A stretch of 59,700 nucleotides of DNA from Bacteroides sp. (GTDB lineage Bacteria > Bacillota > Clostridia > Oscillospirales > Acutalibacteraceae). The stretch is taken from assembly GCA_023665085.1 (NCBI GenBank), contig JAMPEQ010000014.1, positions 1 through 59,700 of the forward strand, read 5' to 3'. Every line of letters begins with the position of its first letter. Positions within the stretch are counted from its first letter, which is position 1. This document shows positions 11,115 to 52,431 of the stretch, in pieces. The notes below the pieces were generated by a model that did not search any database, was not told the DNA's origin, and was given only the letters and a program-made list of their open reading frames with translations. Made by a program: the position numbers and the translations under genes.

Positions 11115-12152
11115 ATGACTAAAAAAATATTGTCAAAAATACTTGCTTTCAGTTTCGGAATCATTACCGTTACAGCAGCTCTTATATTGGTTTTTTTCTA
11201 TTCATTTTATAAAAAACAGATTGCAAACGGTGCAATAGTTAATGCGTCAGATAATGAAAAGATATTTGCTGAAATTGCGGTATATGTTATTTTGATTGTG
11301 CTTGCAGCCGCAGTGTTGTCAGTAATCATAAGTATTGCTATAACCAAAAGCATTGTAAAGCCTGTCGAAGAGCTTGGCGAAAAATTACTGAATGATTTTG
11401 ACAGTGTAGAGGCTTATGATGAGCTTAAGCCGTTTGTGAAAGCTTTTCAGGAGCAAAAAGAAAAACGCAGTCAAACCGATAGACAAAAAAAACAATTCAC
11501 TGCAAATGTATCACATGAATTAAAAACACCTCTTACTTCCATTGCAGGATATGCAGAACTTATTGAAACCGGAATCGCCAGGGAAGAGGATGTAAAACCC
11601 TTTGCATCAACTATAAGAAAACAGGCACTTCGCTTAGTTACGCTAAGCGAGGATATTATTCAGCTTTCACAAATGGACGAAAACGAGGACAATGAGGTTT
11701 CTTTTTCTTCAACAGATATTTATGACACTGCAGACAGATGCATAAAAGCACTTTCAATTAATGCTAAGCTGAGGAATGTTGACTTGACACTGGAGGGGGA
11801 AAGCACTTTTATCAAGGCAAACCCGACTTTGCTTGAAGAAATGATATATAATCTTTGCGATAATGCTATAAGATATAATAAAGAAAACGGAAGCGTTAAG
11901 GTAAGTATATTTTCTGAAGCTGACAGCACAATTCTTTCTGTAAGTGATACCGGAATAGGCATTGAAGAAAAATATCATGAAAGAATTTTTGAAAGATTTT
12001 TCAGGGTAGATAAGTCAAGAAGCAAGGAAACAGGCGGAACAGGATTGGGACTTGCTATTGTAAAACACATAGCCCAGATACATAATGCACAGCTTAAAGT
12101 AGACAGTGCCATAGAAAAAGGCACTAATATTTCAATAATATTCAAAAAATAA
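11115..12152 (+). CDS. Sensor histidine kinase (PhoR-like, almost no extracellular domain)
   Basis: 345-residue membrane kinase. TM1 about 10-30 and TM2 about 52-75 enclose only about 20 residues, so there is no extracytoplasmic ligand domain. Phospho-acceptor H-box VSHELKTPLTSIAGY follows a short linker; N-box NLCDNAIRYN, G1 DTGIGI and G2 GGTGLGLAIV are all intact. ATG 11115 sits 1 nt after the regulator stop with GGTGA upstream; an earlier in-frame ATG at 11088 would overlap the regulator by 26 nt and is less likely. A kinase lacking a sensor domain beside a PhoU-fused transporter fits sensing through PhoU. Confidence 0.93.
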   Translation: MTKKILSKILAFSFGIITVTAALILVFFYSFYKKQIANGAIVNASDNEKIFAEIAVYVILIVLAAAVLSVIISIAITKSIVKPVEELGEKLLNDFDSVEAYDELKPFVKAFQEQKEKRSQTDRQKKQFTANVSHELKTPLTSIAGYAELIETGIAREEDVKPFASTIRKQALRLVTLSEDIIQLSQMDENEDNEVSFSSTDIYDTADRCIKALSINAKLRNVDLTLEGESTFIKANPTLLEEMIYNLCDNAIRYNKENGSVKVSIFSEADSTILSVSDTGIGIEEKYHERIFERFFRVDKSRSKETGGTGLGLAIVKHIAQIHNAQLKVDSAIEKGTNISIIFKK

Positions 12153-25503: not shown

Positions 25504-28500
25504 TTATTCTTTTTTCTTATTCTTTTTCAGCAGGATTAAAAGTAAAATCAATGCAAGCAGTATTGCACATGCAATACAAGACAAGATAATAATACCTTTT
25601 TTGTTATTATTTTTATCACTATTCTTATCAGTTTCAGAACCTCTGTTACCTTCTTCTGAATTTGAAGAATTATTTTCCGTGCTGTTGCTTTTATCTTCCT
25701 CTTTTTCTTCTGCTGTGGTTTTTGTTTCTGCCTTTTTTTCAGTATTATCACCGGCACTGTTGCTGATTGTGGTTTTCTCATTATCAGACTGAGTTTGGTT
25801 GTTTTTGTCTGAAGCAGATGATGTTTTTTCATTTACAGCAATGTTGTTTTTATTATCTGCTGCAGCAGACGAATTATTTGAATTATTATTTTGATTTGCA
25901 GTTTCACCTTTGTCTGTATTGCTGTTGTCTGAATTTGCATTATTTGTATTGTTAGAAGAATTATCGTTATCAGGTTTGTTTTGGTTGCTGTCAGACGAAT
26001 TATTAAATACATTTGCCTGAGTGTAATCCCTTACATACATAACAACAATATCTTCTCCGCCGGAGAGCTCCTGTGCATTCATATATGAATTTACAAATAC
26101 CTTTCCTACAGTATACATCCAGCCTGAATTTCCACCATAATCTTTTTCAGCAAGACCATTTACAGATGAAACATAACTTCCTTTTGCTGTATAGTACATG
26201 TTGTTATCAGCAAGTAATTTCTTGAATACTTCAAATACAGTTGCGCCCTTTGTAAAGGAGTTTTCAGTAGTTTTTGAAATCATTGTTGTTCCGTCAAGTC
26301 CCAGCAGAGTAAAAGTTACGCTGATTGGCTTGTCAAGTTTTTTCTTAAATAATGCAAGCTTAGCACTGTATGCAGATGCCTTGTTTGATGAAGGCATAAC
26401 AGCAAAGCTGTCAGTATAATTTCCAGCACCTACAGCCATAACATATGCACTTACAGGCTGTTTGTAAAGCTGTTTGAATTTTGCCAATGCCTCTGCATCA
26501 TAGTTATTTGCATTAATAAATTTAGTATAATATTTTCCAAGTGTTTCATCAGTAAGAACACTGTTTATTTTAACAAAGGTGTCTTCGTCAGGAGTTTGAT
26601 TTAAGATAAGAGTTTCATTTGAAATTAAATCTTTGTCGCTTGTGCGGAATAATCTCCAGTCCTCCTGCTCTTCCCAGTCCGGCAATTCGTCAACAATGAC
26701 ACCATTGCCTTGTATATCGGAATGACGGTAAATAAAATCAACACCGGATTTATCATTGTTCCATACAATTTGCTTATAAGGCGTTAAGTTGTCAATTATA
26801 CTATATGTGTCAGCATTATTGCCAAGCAAGCCGTTTGCGTAATTCGTCTTTGCCTGATCCATTAAATCAAGTGCAGCGTTTATTTCTGCACGGCTCAAAT
26901 GCTTAACATTAACAGTTATATCCTTTGCTGCAAAAAGATTAGGGTTAGTTTTGCTCTCTATTTTTATGGTGAGAGTTACCTGCTTGTCTGCTGTGTTGTT
27001 TTCACCGAGAGGTCTGTAAACATAGGCTCTGAAGCTGTTTATTTCAATTACATCTGTATCAGAGCTTGTAACAGAAAATTTATAGTTCCAGTAATCCCAG
27101 TATTTTCCGTAATTAAGCTCTGCCAGCTCTTCTGCTGTTACAACCTTGCTTGGAATAATAAGCTGAATATCATTGTCAACAGCTGATGGGTTCAGCTTTT
27201 CTTTGGTTGCTGAATTTGTCAGCTTGTCTGCTGTGTAGCAGGCAAGAATTTTGTTCATTGCATCGAGGCTTTGATCGATTTCTTCATTTGATAATGGATT
27301 GATTGTAATCTCGAATTCCTTTGCTATTGTAACATTTGTTGATGGATTTGTAATGTTGGCAGTCAGTGTAACAATGTGCTCTGTACTGTCACGATAAATA
27401 TTTCCTGTATAAGCGTTATAGATGGCATCGGCACTGCCCTGTCGGTTTTCATCACTTATTGCCAGATGTTTTTCGTCTGAGCTTGTCCAGTTAATCCATG
27501 CGAATGAATACTTGTCTCCTCTTATGCAGGAAGGCAAATTCAAGCTTGATGAAACTGAATTTAATGACTCATTTTCACCGCAGACAGTCTCTTCACTGAG
27601 TACAGTGTCTGCAGAGCTTTCAAGAGATTTTTTTACATTACTTGTATCCCATGGCACTAAAAGGGAATAAATGTTAGTTGTTGGATAAATTACAGTTTTG
27701 TCATTAAAGGTCAGATTGAAAAATACCTGCACTTGTTTGCCGTCGGCATAGCTGTTGTCAGAATTTATCGGATAATTAATTTTACCGTTCTTTGAAATAA
27801 GATTTTCGTCTTCCGTAGAATTAATTGTAACTGTTACACCGTCATATCCCTTGTTTTTTAAAATTTGCTGAAATTTAAAAATAATATTTGTGTCCTGCTC
27901 ATAAACAGGCTGAAGGGACTTAAAATTATACTCCATTGAGTTAAGAATTTCCTGCAGGTATATATCTGCATCTATATCCTCAGACCATACATTGATGTCA
28001 AAGCTTTTTGTTTCGATTGCTTCACCGCAGGTGATTTCTGCAGTAAGAGTAACGACTGAAATATTTTTGTCGGGGAGAGTAACAACACCATTATTGCTGA
28101 TTATATCAGTATTACTGCTGCTCCAGCTTACTGAGCACTCGTTTATTTCTAATGGAAGCTTTAAAGTGCAGCTTTCCTTTACTGTCAGTGTATCTAATGT
28201 AAGCTCTTCAACAGCCCTTTTGACCTTTTCGAGATTTTCTTTTTTCTTTTGTTCAGCAGCTTCCTCTTCAGGAGTTAATTTGTTCTGCCAGATAAAAACA
28301 GGATATCCGTTATTTTTGTTTTTTGTGTCTTCTGTAAACAGCTTATTGTCATCTGCATTCAAATTTGACAAAAGGGAAGCTGTGTCAGTTATTTTTTCAT
28401 ATCCTGATGCACTTCCGCCTGGGACAGTTGTTTCGTCATTTAAGTAGTAGCAGTTAGTAATAACAGCGTTGCTGAAACCGCATATGCCGCTGCTGCTGTT

Positions 28501-29256
28501 ACCTATATTATAGCAATAGCTGATTGAGCCTGTAGTTTGCTGACCGGAAATACCTGCACTTCGTGTTGTGCCATTTATAGTACCTGTGTTATAACAGCTT
28601 GAGATAACCGTTTTTGCTGTTGTGTAGCCGAGGATACCGCCTGCATATCTACCATTTATTTCACCTGCATTGTAACATCCTGTAATAGATGATGCCACTT
28701 TGCTGTTAGATACGATATTGCCGACTATACCTCCGACATAGTTTCCCTTTGCTGTAACAGATCCGCTGAAAGAGCAGTTTTCAACACTGCCGCCCTGCAC
28801 TTTTCCTACAATACCTCCTGCGGTATTTCCTGTAGTTGAAACATTACCGATTACACTTAAATTTTTTACTGTGCCTCCATAAACACAATAAAATAATCCG
28901 TAAAATGCATTGCTTGTATTAATGGAAAGACCTGATATAGTATGACCTTGACCGTCAAATGTGCCTGTGAATGCATCTGCCGGATATCCGCTTGCTGAAA
29001 GACCGATAGGTGTCCATTCATTTTCACCGAGGTAAATATCATCAGTTAAAACGGCACTTATATTTGAGCTGGTTTTTGACTCTTCTGCAAACCAGGCAAG
29101 CTCAGCTCCGCTTCCGATTTGATAAACATTATCTGTCTGAATAGGTTCGGTTTTAGTGCTTCCGTCCCATGCAGTACTTGCAAATACAGGTATTGCCGGC
29201 AATATTGATGTTATCATCAATACTGAAAGCAGCAGGGACAATAATCTTTTTTTCAT
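25504..29256 (-). CDS. B12-riboswitch-controlled surface protein with GLUG, aBig-like and DUF4430 domains
   Basis: 1250-residue exported protein. Signal peptide 1-27. Residues about 45-320 hold GLUG-type repeats (GTFDGQGHTISGLSI, then several AGGIVG and AGGILGY units with CYN). About 340-900 contain several atrophied bacterial Ig-like modules (VSWSSSNTDIIS; INWTSSDEKHLAIS). About 970-1085 is a DUF4430 domain, the transcobalamin C-terminal-like fold, with GGNSGWMYTVGKVF. A roughly 130-residue Asn/Ser/Lys-rich stalk follows, then one TM (about 1222-1245) and a Lys tail; there is no LPXTG. The start overlaps the small upstream gene by four bases. With a cobalamin riboswitch upstream, capture of B12 at the cell surface is the obvious hypothesis. 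Confidence 0.88.
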   Translation of the reverse strand: MKKRLLSLLLSVLMITSILPAIPVFASTAWDGSTKTEPIQTDNVYQIGSGAELAWFAEESKTSSNISAVLTDDIYLGENEWTPIGLSASGYPADAFTGTFDGQGHTISGLSINTSNAFYGLFYCVYGGTVKNLSVIGNVSTTGNTAGGIVGKVQGGSVENCSFSGSVTAKGNYVGGIVGNIVSNSKVASSITGCYNAGEINGRYAGGILGYTTAKTVISSCYNTGTINGTTRSAGISGQQTTGSISYCYNIGNSSSGICGFSNAVITNCYYLNDETTVPGGSASGYEKITDTASLLSNLNADDNKLFTEDTKNKNNGYPVFIWQNKLTPEEEAAEQKKKENLEKVKRAVEELTLDTLTVKESCTLKLPLEINECSVSWSSSNTDIISNNGVVTLPDKNISVVTLTAEITCGEAIETKSFDINVWSEDIDADIYLQEILNSMEYNFKSLQPVYEQDTNIIFKFQQILKNKGYDGVTVTINSTEDENLISKNGKINYPINSDNSYADGKQVQVFFNLTFNDKTVIYPTTNIYSLLVPWDTSNVKKSLESSADTVLSEETVCGENESLNSVSSSLNLPSCIRGDKYSFAWINWTSSDEKHLAISDENRQGSADAIYNAYTGNIYRDSTEHIVTLTANITNPSTNVTIAKEFEITINPLSNEEIDQSLDAMNKILACYTADKLTNSATKEKLNPSAVDNDIQLIIPSKVVTAEELAELNYGKYWDYWNYKFSVTSSDTDVIEINSFRAYVYRPLGENNTADKQVTLTIKIESKTNPNLFAAKDITVNVKHLSRAEINAALDLMDQAKTNYANGLLGNNADTYSIIDNLTPYKQIVWNNDKSGVDFIYRHSDIQGNGVIVDELPDWEEQEDWRLFRTSDKDLISNETLILNQTPDEDTFVKINSVLTDETLGKYYTKFINANNYDAEALAKFKQLYKQPVSAYVMAVGAGNYTDSFAVMPSSNKASAYSAKLALFKKKLDKPISVTFTLLGLDGTTMISKTTENSFTKGATVFEVFKKLLADNNMYYTAKGSYVSSVNGLAEKDYGGNSGWMYTVGKVFVNSYMNAQELSGGEDIVVMYVRDYTQANVFNNSSDSNQNKPDNDNSSNNTNNANSDNSNTDKGETANQNNNSNNSSAAADNKNNIAVNEKTSSASDKNNQTQSDNEKTTISNSAGDNTEKKAETKTTAEEKEEDKSNSTENNSSNSEEGNRGSETDKNSDKNNNKKGIIILSCIACAILLALILLLILLKKNKKKE

Positions 29257-29522
29257 TCTTTGTTTTCCTCCTTAAAATGTTTTTTCCTGTATTTGATTTG
29301 ATTTTCTTTGGCACGACGGCGCTTTTCACGCTTTTGTTCAATTTTCTTCAGATCGGGTGCTTTTACACCCGCTGCTTCCAAGGCTCTGGGCCATGGACCG
29401 AAAAATGATTTAATCATGTTTACTGTTTCATTATCAAAATCAGACTTTTTAGGAAAATGTCCAAGCTCTTCCGTTTTTTGCTGTATCATAAAAATGCACT
29501 GCTCTTTTGTAATTTTGCTCAT
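29253..29522 (-). CDS. Small homing-endonuclease-associated-repeat protein
   Basis: 89 residues. The core CIFMIQQKTEELGHFPKKSD through FGPWPRALEAAGV matches the roughly 40-residue repeat found beside HNH homing endonucleases and in small DNA-binding proteins, here as one copy with a very basic C-terminal tail (EQKREKRRRAKENQIKYRKK). No nuclease domain is present, so it is probably a DNA- or RNA-binding protein. First gene after the cobalamin riboswitch terminator; ribosome site GGAG; its TGA stop overlaps the surface-protein ATG. Confidence 0.72.
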   Translation of the reverse strand: MSKITKEQCIFMIQQKTEELGHFPKKSDFDNETVNMIKSFFGPWPRALEAAGVKAPDLKKIEQKREKRRRAKENQIKYRKKHFKEENKE

Positions 29523-29544
29523 ATTTGCTCCAATCTCTTACAAA

Positions 29545-29582
29545 TAAAAATGCACATTTCTACAAAACGTAAAAATGTGCAA
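29545..29582 (-). terminator. Riboswitch expression-platform terminator
   Basis: 9-bp stem (29573-29581 / 29551-29559) followed on the minus strand by TTTTTATTT, 23 nt before the first ATG. Fits a transcription-attenuation platform of the upstream riboswitch. Confidence 0.8.
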
Positions 29583-29626
29583 CATAATTTTTGCAAGCCA
29601 AAAAATCCAAAAGAATGCAGCTGCTC

Positions 29627-29801
29627 TTTGGTACTCACATAAAACGGTTGCACTCTTCCTACCCAAAAGTGTATACAGGTAACCCTGTTTTTCAGCAGGA
29701 ATTCCGACTTATTAAAATATGTATAATTTTAAATCACGGTAATGGCGGTTGCGACGGATTTTCACCGAACTTCCCCTTGAATGCAATAATGCAACACCAA
29801 A
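29627..29801 (-). promoter_or_regulatory. Cobalamin riboswitch
   Basis: Minus-strand aptamer of about 175 nt. The conserved core reads GGGGAAGTTCGGTGAAAATC, matching the cobalamin box GGGAA..GGTG.AAATCC. The later AGTCGGAATTCCTGC matches the AGyCaGaagACCTGC segment, and a peripheral GGTAGGAAGAGTGCAACC arm follows. P1 closes as TTTGGT (29801-29796) with ACCAAA (29632-29627). A terminator lies downstream, so cobalamin should switch off the HNH-repeat/surface-protein operon. Confidence 0.87.
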
Positions 29802-29889
29802 AAACAGATTTATTAAATTTTTTGTTATTCTATCACTATATATTCTGATTGTCAAGGCTGAAAAAATAATACAAGCTATTTGAAAGCAC

Positions 29890-52073: not shown

Positions 52074-52096
52074 ATTTTTTACCTCACAAAAATAAA

Positions 52097-52431
52097 TGGC
52101 AAGCCGGCAGTAAGCCGAGTTCTGTCGTGGGCAGTTATCTATCTTGGCACAGCATTGCTGCGGTGCTCCAGCCATCCGTCAAGGTTATGTGTCGAGCAAA
52201 CAACTCCTTGGTCGATGTTGCAGCGGATAGGGTTTACATGGCAGGAGATGTCTCCATCTCCTCGGTGAGCTCTTACCTCGCCTTTCCATCCTTACCTCAA
52301 AAGAGGCGGTTTATTTCTGTTGCACTTTCCCTAAGGTCACCCTCGGCGGCCGTTAGCCGTTATCCTGCTCTGTGCTGCTCGGACTTTCCTCATACTGCAA
52401 AGCAGTACGCAACTGCCTTGCCGACTTGCTA
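52097..52431 (-). ncRNA. rnpB: RNase P RNA (bacterial class A-like)
   Basis: About 335-nt ribozyme that trims tRNA 5' leaders. The conserved GAGGAAAGTCC (minus strand, around 52391-52381) and the late ACAGAA region are present. P1 pairs GCAAGTCGGCA (52429-52419) with TGCCGGCTTGC (52109-52099), with one G-U, fixing the ends to within a few bases. A U-rich stretch follows P1, but no separate terminator separates it from the aldolase gene. Confidence 0.92.

What the first reader, a model, noticed from the sequence alone, without database searches (positions are those of the whole stretch)
25504..29801. Cobalamin-riboswitch-controlled giant surface protein with a transcobalamin-like domain: a possible Gram-positive B12 capture system
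Seen: a minus-strand aptamer with both conserved cobalamin boxes and closing P1 stem (29627-29801), a transcription terminator just before the first gene, then a 1250-residue protein with signal peptide, GLUG repeats, Ig-like modules, a DUF4430 domain and a C-terminal TM without LPXTG. Known: the riboswitch class represses genes when B12 is plentiful; DUF4430 resembles the C-terminal domain of transcobalamin/intrinsic factor. Inference: the protein displays a B12-binding domain on the surface to scavenge corrinoids, analogous in role to BtuG of Bacteroides.
Basis: partly seen in the sequence, partly recalled or inferred. Interest (0 to 1): 0.82.

Follow-up and report, generated by a model that had tools for sequence, protein, structure and literature searches.

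The report
Riboswitch-controlled bacterial B12 capture protein
A gut bacterium that seems unable to make vitamin B12 uses a B12-sensing RNA switch to control a long surface protein carrying a domain folded like the vitamin-gripping half of our own B12 carrier proteins, probably to catch B12 outside the cell.

Summary

The link is not chance: all 9 giants found carry the riboswitch, and in the genus 36 of 38 RF00174 hits have DUF4430 and/or a toroid-like partner ('c0') downstream. In relatives DUF4430 genes often sit beside ECF transporter genes. This genome has a MetH-like gene, a corrinoid adenosyltransferase next to an ECF-type transporter, and no CbiD or FecCD hit. Best reading: a B12-repressed surface corrinoid-capture protein feeding an ECF importer. 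B12 binding is untested.

Burroughs et al. (2007) already predicted B12 scavenging by this domain family in Gram-positives, so this is a new variant of a known kind. Additions: the usual partner c0 is absent here, and a rare small HNH_repeat protein recurs in B12-riboswitch operons. BtuG is only a functional analogy.

The parts
29827..29855 (-). sigma-70-like promoter, TTGACA-17-TAGAAT with TG before the second hexamer
   Evidence: consensus match only
29677..29816 (-). cobalamin riboswitch aptamer, RF00174
   Evidence: 41.9 bits, gathering 31.5; only hit in the genome
29738..29742 (-). L5 strand UUACC, proposed kissing-loop partner of the L13 loop
   Evidence: 34 of 36 cells of four pairs are standard pairs in 9 leaders
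29651..29671 (-). P13/L13 hairpin CACUUUU-GGGUAGG-AAGAGUG
   Evidence: 63 of 63 cells paired in 9 leaders, nearly invariant
29647..29653 (-). proposed antiterminator 5' strand GUGCAAC, overlaps the 3' side of P13
   Evidence: pairs with 29583-29577; 60 of 63 cells paired; no covariation
29577..29583 (-). GUUGCAC, shared by antiterminator and terminator
29551..29581 (-). intrinsic terminator stem-loop before a T run
   Evidence: six stem pairs invariant in 9 leaders, 3 upper pairs with changes on both sides
29253..29522 (-). 89-aa HNH_repeat (PF18780) protein; overlaps the start of the giant by 4 nt
   Evidence: (50.3 bits); kept in 7 of the 8 other giant loci
25504..29256 (-). 1250-aa secreted, membrane-anchored surface protein
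29176..29256 (-). signal peptide, residues about 1-27 (inferred)
   Evidence: hydropathy
28753..28830 (-). GLUG motif, best stretch (residues 143-168), within a region (about 28-290) modelled mostly as beta strands
   Evidence: Foldseek best hit 3n6z
27982..28182 (-). aBig_2 module, best stretch (residues 359-425); Ig-like array follows
26035..26247 (-). DUF4430 (PF14478), transcobalamin beta-domain fold (residues 1004-1074)
25612..26001 (-). Asn/Ser-rich linker (residues 1086-1215)
25534..25590 (-). C-terminal transmembrane segment (about 1223-1241), then a short basic tail

Best explanation
This is a corrinoid-capture surface protein under a cobalamin OFF riboswitch. When cellular B12 is low, the strand GUGCAAC pairs with GUUGCAC (antiterminator) and the HNH_repeat gene and the giant are transcribed. 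When cobalamin fills the aptamer, the L5-L13 kissing loop fixes the P13 hairpin, frees GUUGCAC, the terminator forms and transcription stops. The giant is secreted, anchored by a C-terminal TM, and holds a transcobalamin-like beta domain out on a GLUG/Ig stalk. That domain catches corrinoids outside and hands them to an ECF importer, whose genes in this genome sit beside a corrinoid adenosyltransferase; the cofactor serves MetH. Shown by computation: riboswitch, terminator, domain fold, conserved linkage, presence of adenosyltransferase, ECF-type and MetH-like genes, absence of CbiD and FecCD hits. Inferred: B12 binding, handover, ECF specificity, order of switching.
Against: No binding or expression data. 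Single-sequence phmmer of the giant finds no B12 carrier; only profile and fold do. B12-contact residues were not tested. The c0 partner present in 34 of 37 genus genomes is absent here. The giant and the ECF-type genes are on different contigs in this assembly, and only the giant has the riboswitch. The S component's best family names are riboflavin (PF07155, 47.9 bits) and, below cut-off, folate; the EcfT-like protein has no Pfam or NCBIfam hit and is named by position and by similarity to relatives. One relative (G027) has a riboswitch before an aBig_2/fn3 protein with no DUF4430 hit. At 11 of 52 riboswitches the nearest DUF4430 gene is divergent, so that gene is not under it. The antiterminator shows conservation but no covariation, and one leader (L129) breaks 3 of its 7 pairs.
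Confidence: 0.7

Rival explanations
1. B12 is only a cue: the giant is an adhesin (GLUG plus Ig-like array) that binds host or fibre polymers, and its DUF4430 domain binds something else or is structural. The riboswitch times adhesion to a B12-poor niche.
For: GLUG region resembles a putative IgA1 protease, 3n6z; the Ig-like array resembles cadherin stalks; toroid-like partner missing; one riboswitch-led aBig_2/fn3 protein without a DUF4430 hit.
Against: DUF4430 is what recurs across unrelated architectures behind the riboswitch, including small (128-252 aa as called) proteins followed by ECF S components; the fold match is specific to B12 carriers.
Confidence: 0.17
2. The protein binds corrinoids but does not feed uptake: it stores B12 on the surface, or binds B12-loaded host carriers or B12-producing neighbours.
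For: Giant not linked to the ECF-type genes in this genome; very long stalk.
Against: In relatives DUF4430 genes are directly followed by ECF genes.
Confidence: 0.08
3. The domain takes a related ligand such as a cobinamide, another tetrapyrrole or a metal complex, with the riboswitch co-opted.
For: The nearest solved bacterial relative 3u7z was deposited as a putative metal-binding protein; Burroughs 2007 allows precursors, or a distinct metabolite in archaea.
Against: Cobalamin riboswitch control, adenosyltransferase next to the ECF-type genes, and MetH as the only B12-binding protein found.
Confidence: 0.05

Closest known systems
Transcobalamin-like clade of the SLBB beta-grasp superfamily (Burroughs et al. 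2007, PMC1796856; passages read); Pfam PF14478 DUF4430
   Same: Secreted Gram-positive proteins, fusions to Ig-like domains, two-strand insert after the helix, B12 scavenging predicted, operons with CbiO/CbiQ-like transporter genes.
   Different: The word riboswitch has 0 occurrences in that paper. Here: riboswitch control, no toroid-like partner found, GLUG/aBig_2 giant, HNH_repeat partner.
Animal transcobalamin, intrinsic factor, haptocorrin
   [quoted passage not shown] none was recognised in the giant and c0 is absent from the genome.
BtuH of Bacteroides (PMC8941943; passages read)
   Same: Ig-like modules plus a C-terminal B12-binding domain, in riboswitch-regulated cobamide loci.
   Different: Its B12 domain is reported to have no known structural homologues, and it serves the transport loci of a Gram-negative. 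[quoted passage not shown]
BtuG of Bacteroides (PMC6143338; search listing with start of abstract only)
   Same: Surface B12 capture, by role.
   Different: Surface lipoprotein (title) with a beta-propeller domain (so described in PMC8941943); no resemblance seen here.
Cobalamin riboswitches of Clostridia such as C. difficile (PMC11477304; passages read)
   Same: OFF switches before transport or synthesis genes.
   Different: There: biosynthesis, cobalt ECF and ABC genes. Here: an HNH_repeat ORF and a surface protein.

Membership tests
RF00174 cobalamin riboswitch | covariance-model score above the gathering threshold | tested here: met
   41.9 against 31.5 bits
RF00174 cobalamin riboswitch | L5-L13 kissing loop linking aptamer and expression platform (recalled feature) | tested here: met
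   pairing kept in 34 of 36 cells, P13 in 63 of 63; little covariation, so support is by conservation
RF00174 cobalamin riboswitch | binds a cobalamin and changes expression | not testable with these tools
   needs in-line probing or reporters
PF14478 DUF4430 / transcobalamin-like SLBB clade | profile score above cut-off | tested here: met
   43.6 against 23.8 bits
PF14478 DUF4430 / transcobalamin-like SLBB clade | beta-grasp fold with a beta-hairpin insert after the helix | tested here: met
   model: helix 68-78 then strands 83-86 and 89-93; best matches are B12-carrier beta domains
PF14478 DUF4430 / transcobalamin-like SLBB clade | binds B12 or a related corrinoid | not testable with these tools
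   no ligand assay; contact residues not examined
Animal-type transcobalamin / intrinsic factor | alpha/alpha toroid in the same chain | tested here: not met
   Pfam at E <= 1 finds no toroid family in the giant; c0 profile finds 0 matches in the whole genome while 35 of 60 genomes are positive; part of the giant is modelled with low confidence
BtuG/BtuH surface B12 proteins | BtuG beta-propeller or BtuH C-terminal domain | tested here: inconclusive
   neither appears in the rows shown; absence from lists does not exclude them
Sortase-anchored surface protein | LPXTG-type motif before the C-terminal TM | tested here: not met
   no motif of the form [LNIVFQYS]PxTG in 1250 residues

The most novel reading that the evidence does not exclude
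Members of this genus display the two halves of an intrinsic-factor-like clamp as separate surface proteins, at least one of them under a B12 riboswitch (a DUF4430 beta-domain protein and a toroid-like 'c0' protein), forming a split transcobalamin that feeds an ECF importer. In the window's species the pair has been replaced by one toroid-less giant working with a beta domain alone. The translationally coupled HNH_repeat protein is a dedicated, undescribed component of B12 regulons, perhaps a nucleic-acid-binding regulator of the downstream uptake genes.
Probability: 0.35. Interest if true: 0.74.

Novelty: new variant of a known kind. Interest (0 to 1): 0.6.

Why it matters
[quoted passage not shown] The riboswitch linkage gives the 2007 prediction for transcobalamin-like bacterial domains independent, regulatory support and turns it into one binding assay. 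If right, these bacteria compete for B12 with a relative of the host's own carrier domain. The HNH_repeat gene between riboswitch and uptake genes is an unassigned, recurrent part of B12 regulons.

Tried and rejected
Direct sequence match of the giant to solved B12 carriers: none; a profile of 37 DUF4430 domains was needed. Proving c0 a toroid by sequence: no convincing PDB or Pfam hit (caught choline-binding tails). The only support is indirect: in G039 the c0 profile match (E 3e-4), which I convert to about residues 178-293 of the ORF, overlaps a sub-threshold Pfam squalene-cyclase match at 173-285, and a DUF4430 domain follows in the same ORF. c0 relatives in viral contigs, so that c0 could be folded: none; c0 was not folded because its loci come from a source that the structure tool does not list. 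The full-ectodomain model was too weak (pTM 0.39) to place DUF4430 against the other domains. Covariation for the antiterminator: none. DUF4430 in the N-terminus of long c0 proteins: no HMMER hit, hhalign probability 62% only. Surface ORFs next to HNH_repeat genes in L152, L156 and L160: no DUF4430 or c0 hit. Chance co-occurrence of riboswitch and DUF4430 rejected, though the chance figure is crude and the genomes are related. Searches for prior print: (open-licence PubMed Central only); the listings showed no paper on a DUF4430-riboswitch link; one search listed 15 of 38 papers. PMC2667541 (passages) reports BtuFCD homologues in most B12-uptaking prokaryotes; none was found here. Pfam's DUF1180 and Orf78 hits in the C-terminal linker and TM were set aside as below cut-off and composition-driven.
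Full report
OBSERVATION. Rfam finds one cobalamin aptamer (RF00174) in the window at 29816-29677 on the minus strand, 41.9 bits against a gathering score of 31.5, and it is the only one in the 2.34-Mb genome. A sigma-70-like promoter with 11 of 12 consensus bases lies just upstream at 29855-29827 and a terminator-like hairpin at 29581-29551. The next ORF is an 89-aa HNH_repeat (PF18780) protein at 29253-29522; its end overlaps the start of the 1250-aa ORF at 25504-29256. Pfam finds aBig_2, DUF4430 and GLUG in the large protein. It has a hydrophobic N-terminus, an Asn/Ser-rich linker, a C-terminal TM and no LPXTG-like motif.

IS IT MORE THAN CHANCE. A three-sequence alignment of the giant retrieved eight loci from GTDB genomes, titled uncultured Clostridia, uncultured Lachnospiraceae or Lachnoclostridium; two of them (L123, L124) carry the same ORFs as G011:C76 and G021:C76. 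All eight have RF00174 upstream on the same strand, so 9 of 9 with the window. The weakest, L129, scores 32.0 bits, barely over the threshold. The HNH_repeat ORF is found in 7 of the 8, not in L129.

SWITCH ANATOMY. In an alignment of the nine leaders the hairpin CACUUUU-loop-AAGAGUG just after the aptamer pairs in 63 of 63 cells; its loop pairs with L5 in 34 of 36 cells; the terminator has three pairs with changes on both sides. GUGCAAC, overlapping the 3' arm of that hairpin, pairs with GUUGCAC of the terminator's 5' arm in 60 of 63 cells. This is the anatomy of an OFF switch by termination: ligand, kissing loop and P13 formed, antiterminator prevented. The antiterminator rests on conserved complementarity, not covariation: all 500 shuffles are at least as high on every measure, and L129 breaks 3 of 7 pairs. 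For P13, kissing loop and terminator together, 34 of 500 shuffles reach the observed percentage paired and 47 the covariation score, so that support too is moderate.

GENOMIC LOGIC. Across 60 genomes (own plus 59 relatives) 55 have DUF4430 and 48 have RF00174 (stricter filters). Of 52 riboswitches, 30 have a DUF4430 gene within 8 kb; a crude expectation is 0.5. 19 have it downstream on the same strand within 5 kb; at 11 it is adjacent but divergent. In the genus the riboswitch usually drives another secreted family, which I call c0 (345-759 aa as called, in part N-terminally over-extended; of the nine proteins scanned or aligned closely some have LPXTG/NPXTG-like, choline-binding-like or fn3 tails), beside or apart from a ~250-aa DUF4430 gene. 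36 of 38 genus riboswitches have c0 (within 9 kb) or DUF4430 (within 5 kb) downstream on the same strand; 10 of 14 others have DUF4430. Six of 52 have neither by these cut-offs; two of these precede MetE (G044) and CbiD (G048), as expected of the class, and one (G058) precedes an ORF with a sub-threshold DUF4430 match. c0 occurs in 34 of 37 genus genomes and is missing in the window's genome, in G021 (which also has the giant) and in the 62%-complete G010; G011 has both c0 and the giant. c0 and DUF4430 matches fall in one open frame in G008, G035 and G039 (for G035 and G039). c0 as the toroid half is therefore a reasonable but unproven reading.

TRANSPORT. An ECF S-component-like family (A6, no Pfam or NCBIfam hit of its own for the members scanned) has 13 strong hits (E <= 1e-40) in 60 genomes; 11 are within 50 bp of a DUF4430 hit, and the other two are beside small ORFs with sub-threshold DUF4430 matches. 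That this family is an S component rests on weak similarity to the families below, so it is an inference. This genome has a corrinoid adenosyltransferase (PF02572, 140.9 bits), an EcfT-like protein without family hit, a double ATPase and a PF07155 S component in a row on contig C2; related EcfT/EcfA/S genes follow DUF4430 genes in G035, G039, G044 and G049. The S component's family names are riboflavin (above cut-off) and folate (below it), so B12 specificity is inferred from context. The only PF02310 protein is MetH-like. FecCD: none. CbiD: none in 37 genus genomes, 3 of 60 overall. So the cell needs corrinoids for MetH, shows no sign of anaerobic synthesis by this one marker, and lacks a BtuC-type importer hit.

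HNH_REPEAT PARTNER. PF18780 is rare: 6 of 60 relatives. In five of the six (G000, G011, G021, G056, G008) it lies just upstream of a DUF4430 gene; in four of these it is downstream of the riboswitch on its strand, in G008 it is on the opposite strand from the riboswitch. The sixth, G043, is elsewhere. In a class-wide draw 21 of 391 genomes have it. Of the 30 loci returned I gave 23 to Rfam (20, 3), leaving out the window's own and six further loci of contigs already covered; five of the 23 have RF00174 (L151, L156, L157, L158, L160), each upstream of the HNH_repeat gene on its strand. L157 is a giant locus, with the same ORFs as L130. In L158 the next ORF has DUF4430 (75.0 bits) and in L151 it is a FecCD permease (164.8 bits, cut at the locus end). 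The other 18 of 23 have no RF00174 in their roughly 2-3 kb stretch, and several are multi-repeat proteins of another kind. Only one paper was found by searching the family's names, on repeat-protein modelling (listing only).

PRIOR KNOWLEDGE. Burroughs et al. 2007 (passages read) defined this clade, noted Gram-positive surface proteins with Ig-like fusions, toroid fusions and CbiO/CbiQ operons, and proposed B12 scavenging. The word riboswitch does not occur there. I found no paper in the searchable library joining DUF4430 and cobalamin riboswitches. The finding is therefore a new variant of a known kind whose function I did not find tested.

VERDICT. Observation confirmed; interpretation right in direction but not new in principle, and incomplete. 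Confidence 0.7 in corrinoid capture for uptake; about 0.95 that riboswitch and fold are real; about 0.8 that it is an OFF switch by termination.

Noticed in passing
window 29253-29522 (-); L085 about 11273-11473; L101 7558-7890; L151, L156, L158, L160: A small HNH_repeat (PF18780) protein recurs between cobalamin riboswitches and DUF4430 or, in L151, a FecCD permease gene; its role is unknown.
   Followed up: partly
L087 8967-10004 and 30 further ORFs of the c0 cluster: A secreted family (c0), without convincing Pfam or PDB match over its core, is the usual riboswitch target in this genus; perhaps the toroid half of a split transcobalamin.
   Followed up: partly
L100 220-6140 (G035); L135 3672-10323 (G039): DUF4430 proteins (one with a c0-like region in the same ORF, in L100 with a dockerin) directly followed by EcfT-like, ATPase and S-component genes.
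   Followed up: yes
L094 4970-7381 (G027:C14): Riboswitch before an 803-aa aBig_2/fn3 protein with no DUF4430 hit.
   Followed up: no
L156 1842-2437 (-): Two cobalamin riboswitches in tandem before an HNH_repeat gene and a secreted protein.
   Followed up: no
L127, L128, L130: Related giants labelled Clostridia, Lachnoclostridium or Lachnospiraceae end in a Lys-rich tail instead of the window's TM plus basic tail, so the anchor differs while riboswitch and DUF4430 are kept.
   Followed up: no
window 52096-52428 (-): RNase P RNA, class A (277.6 bits); ordinary.
   Followed up: no
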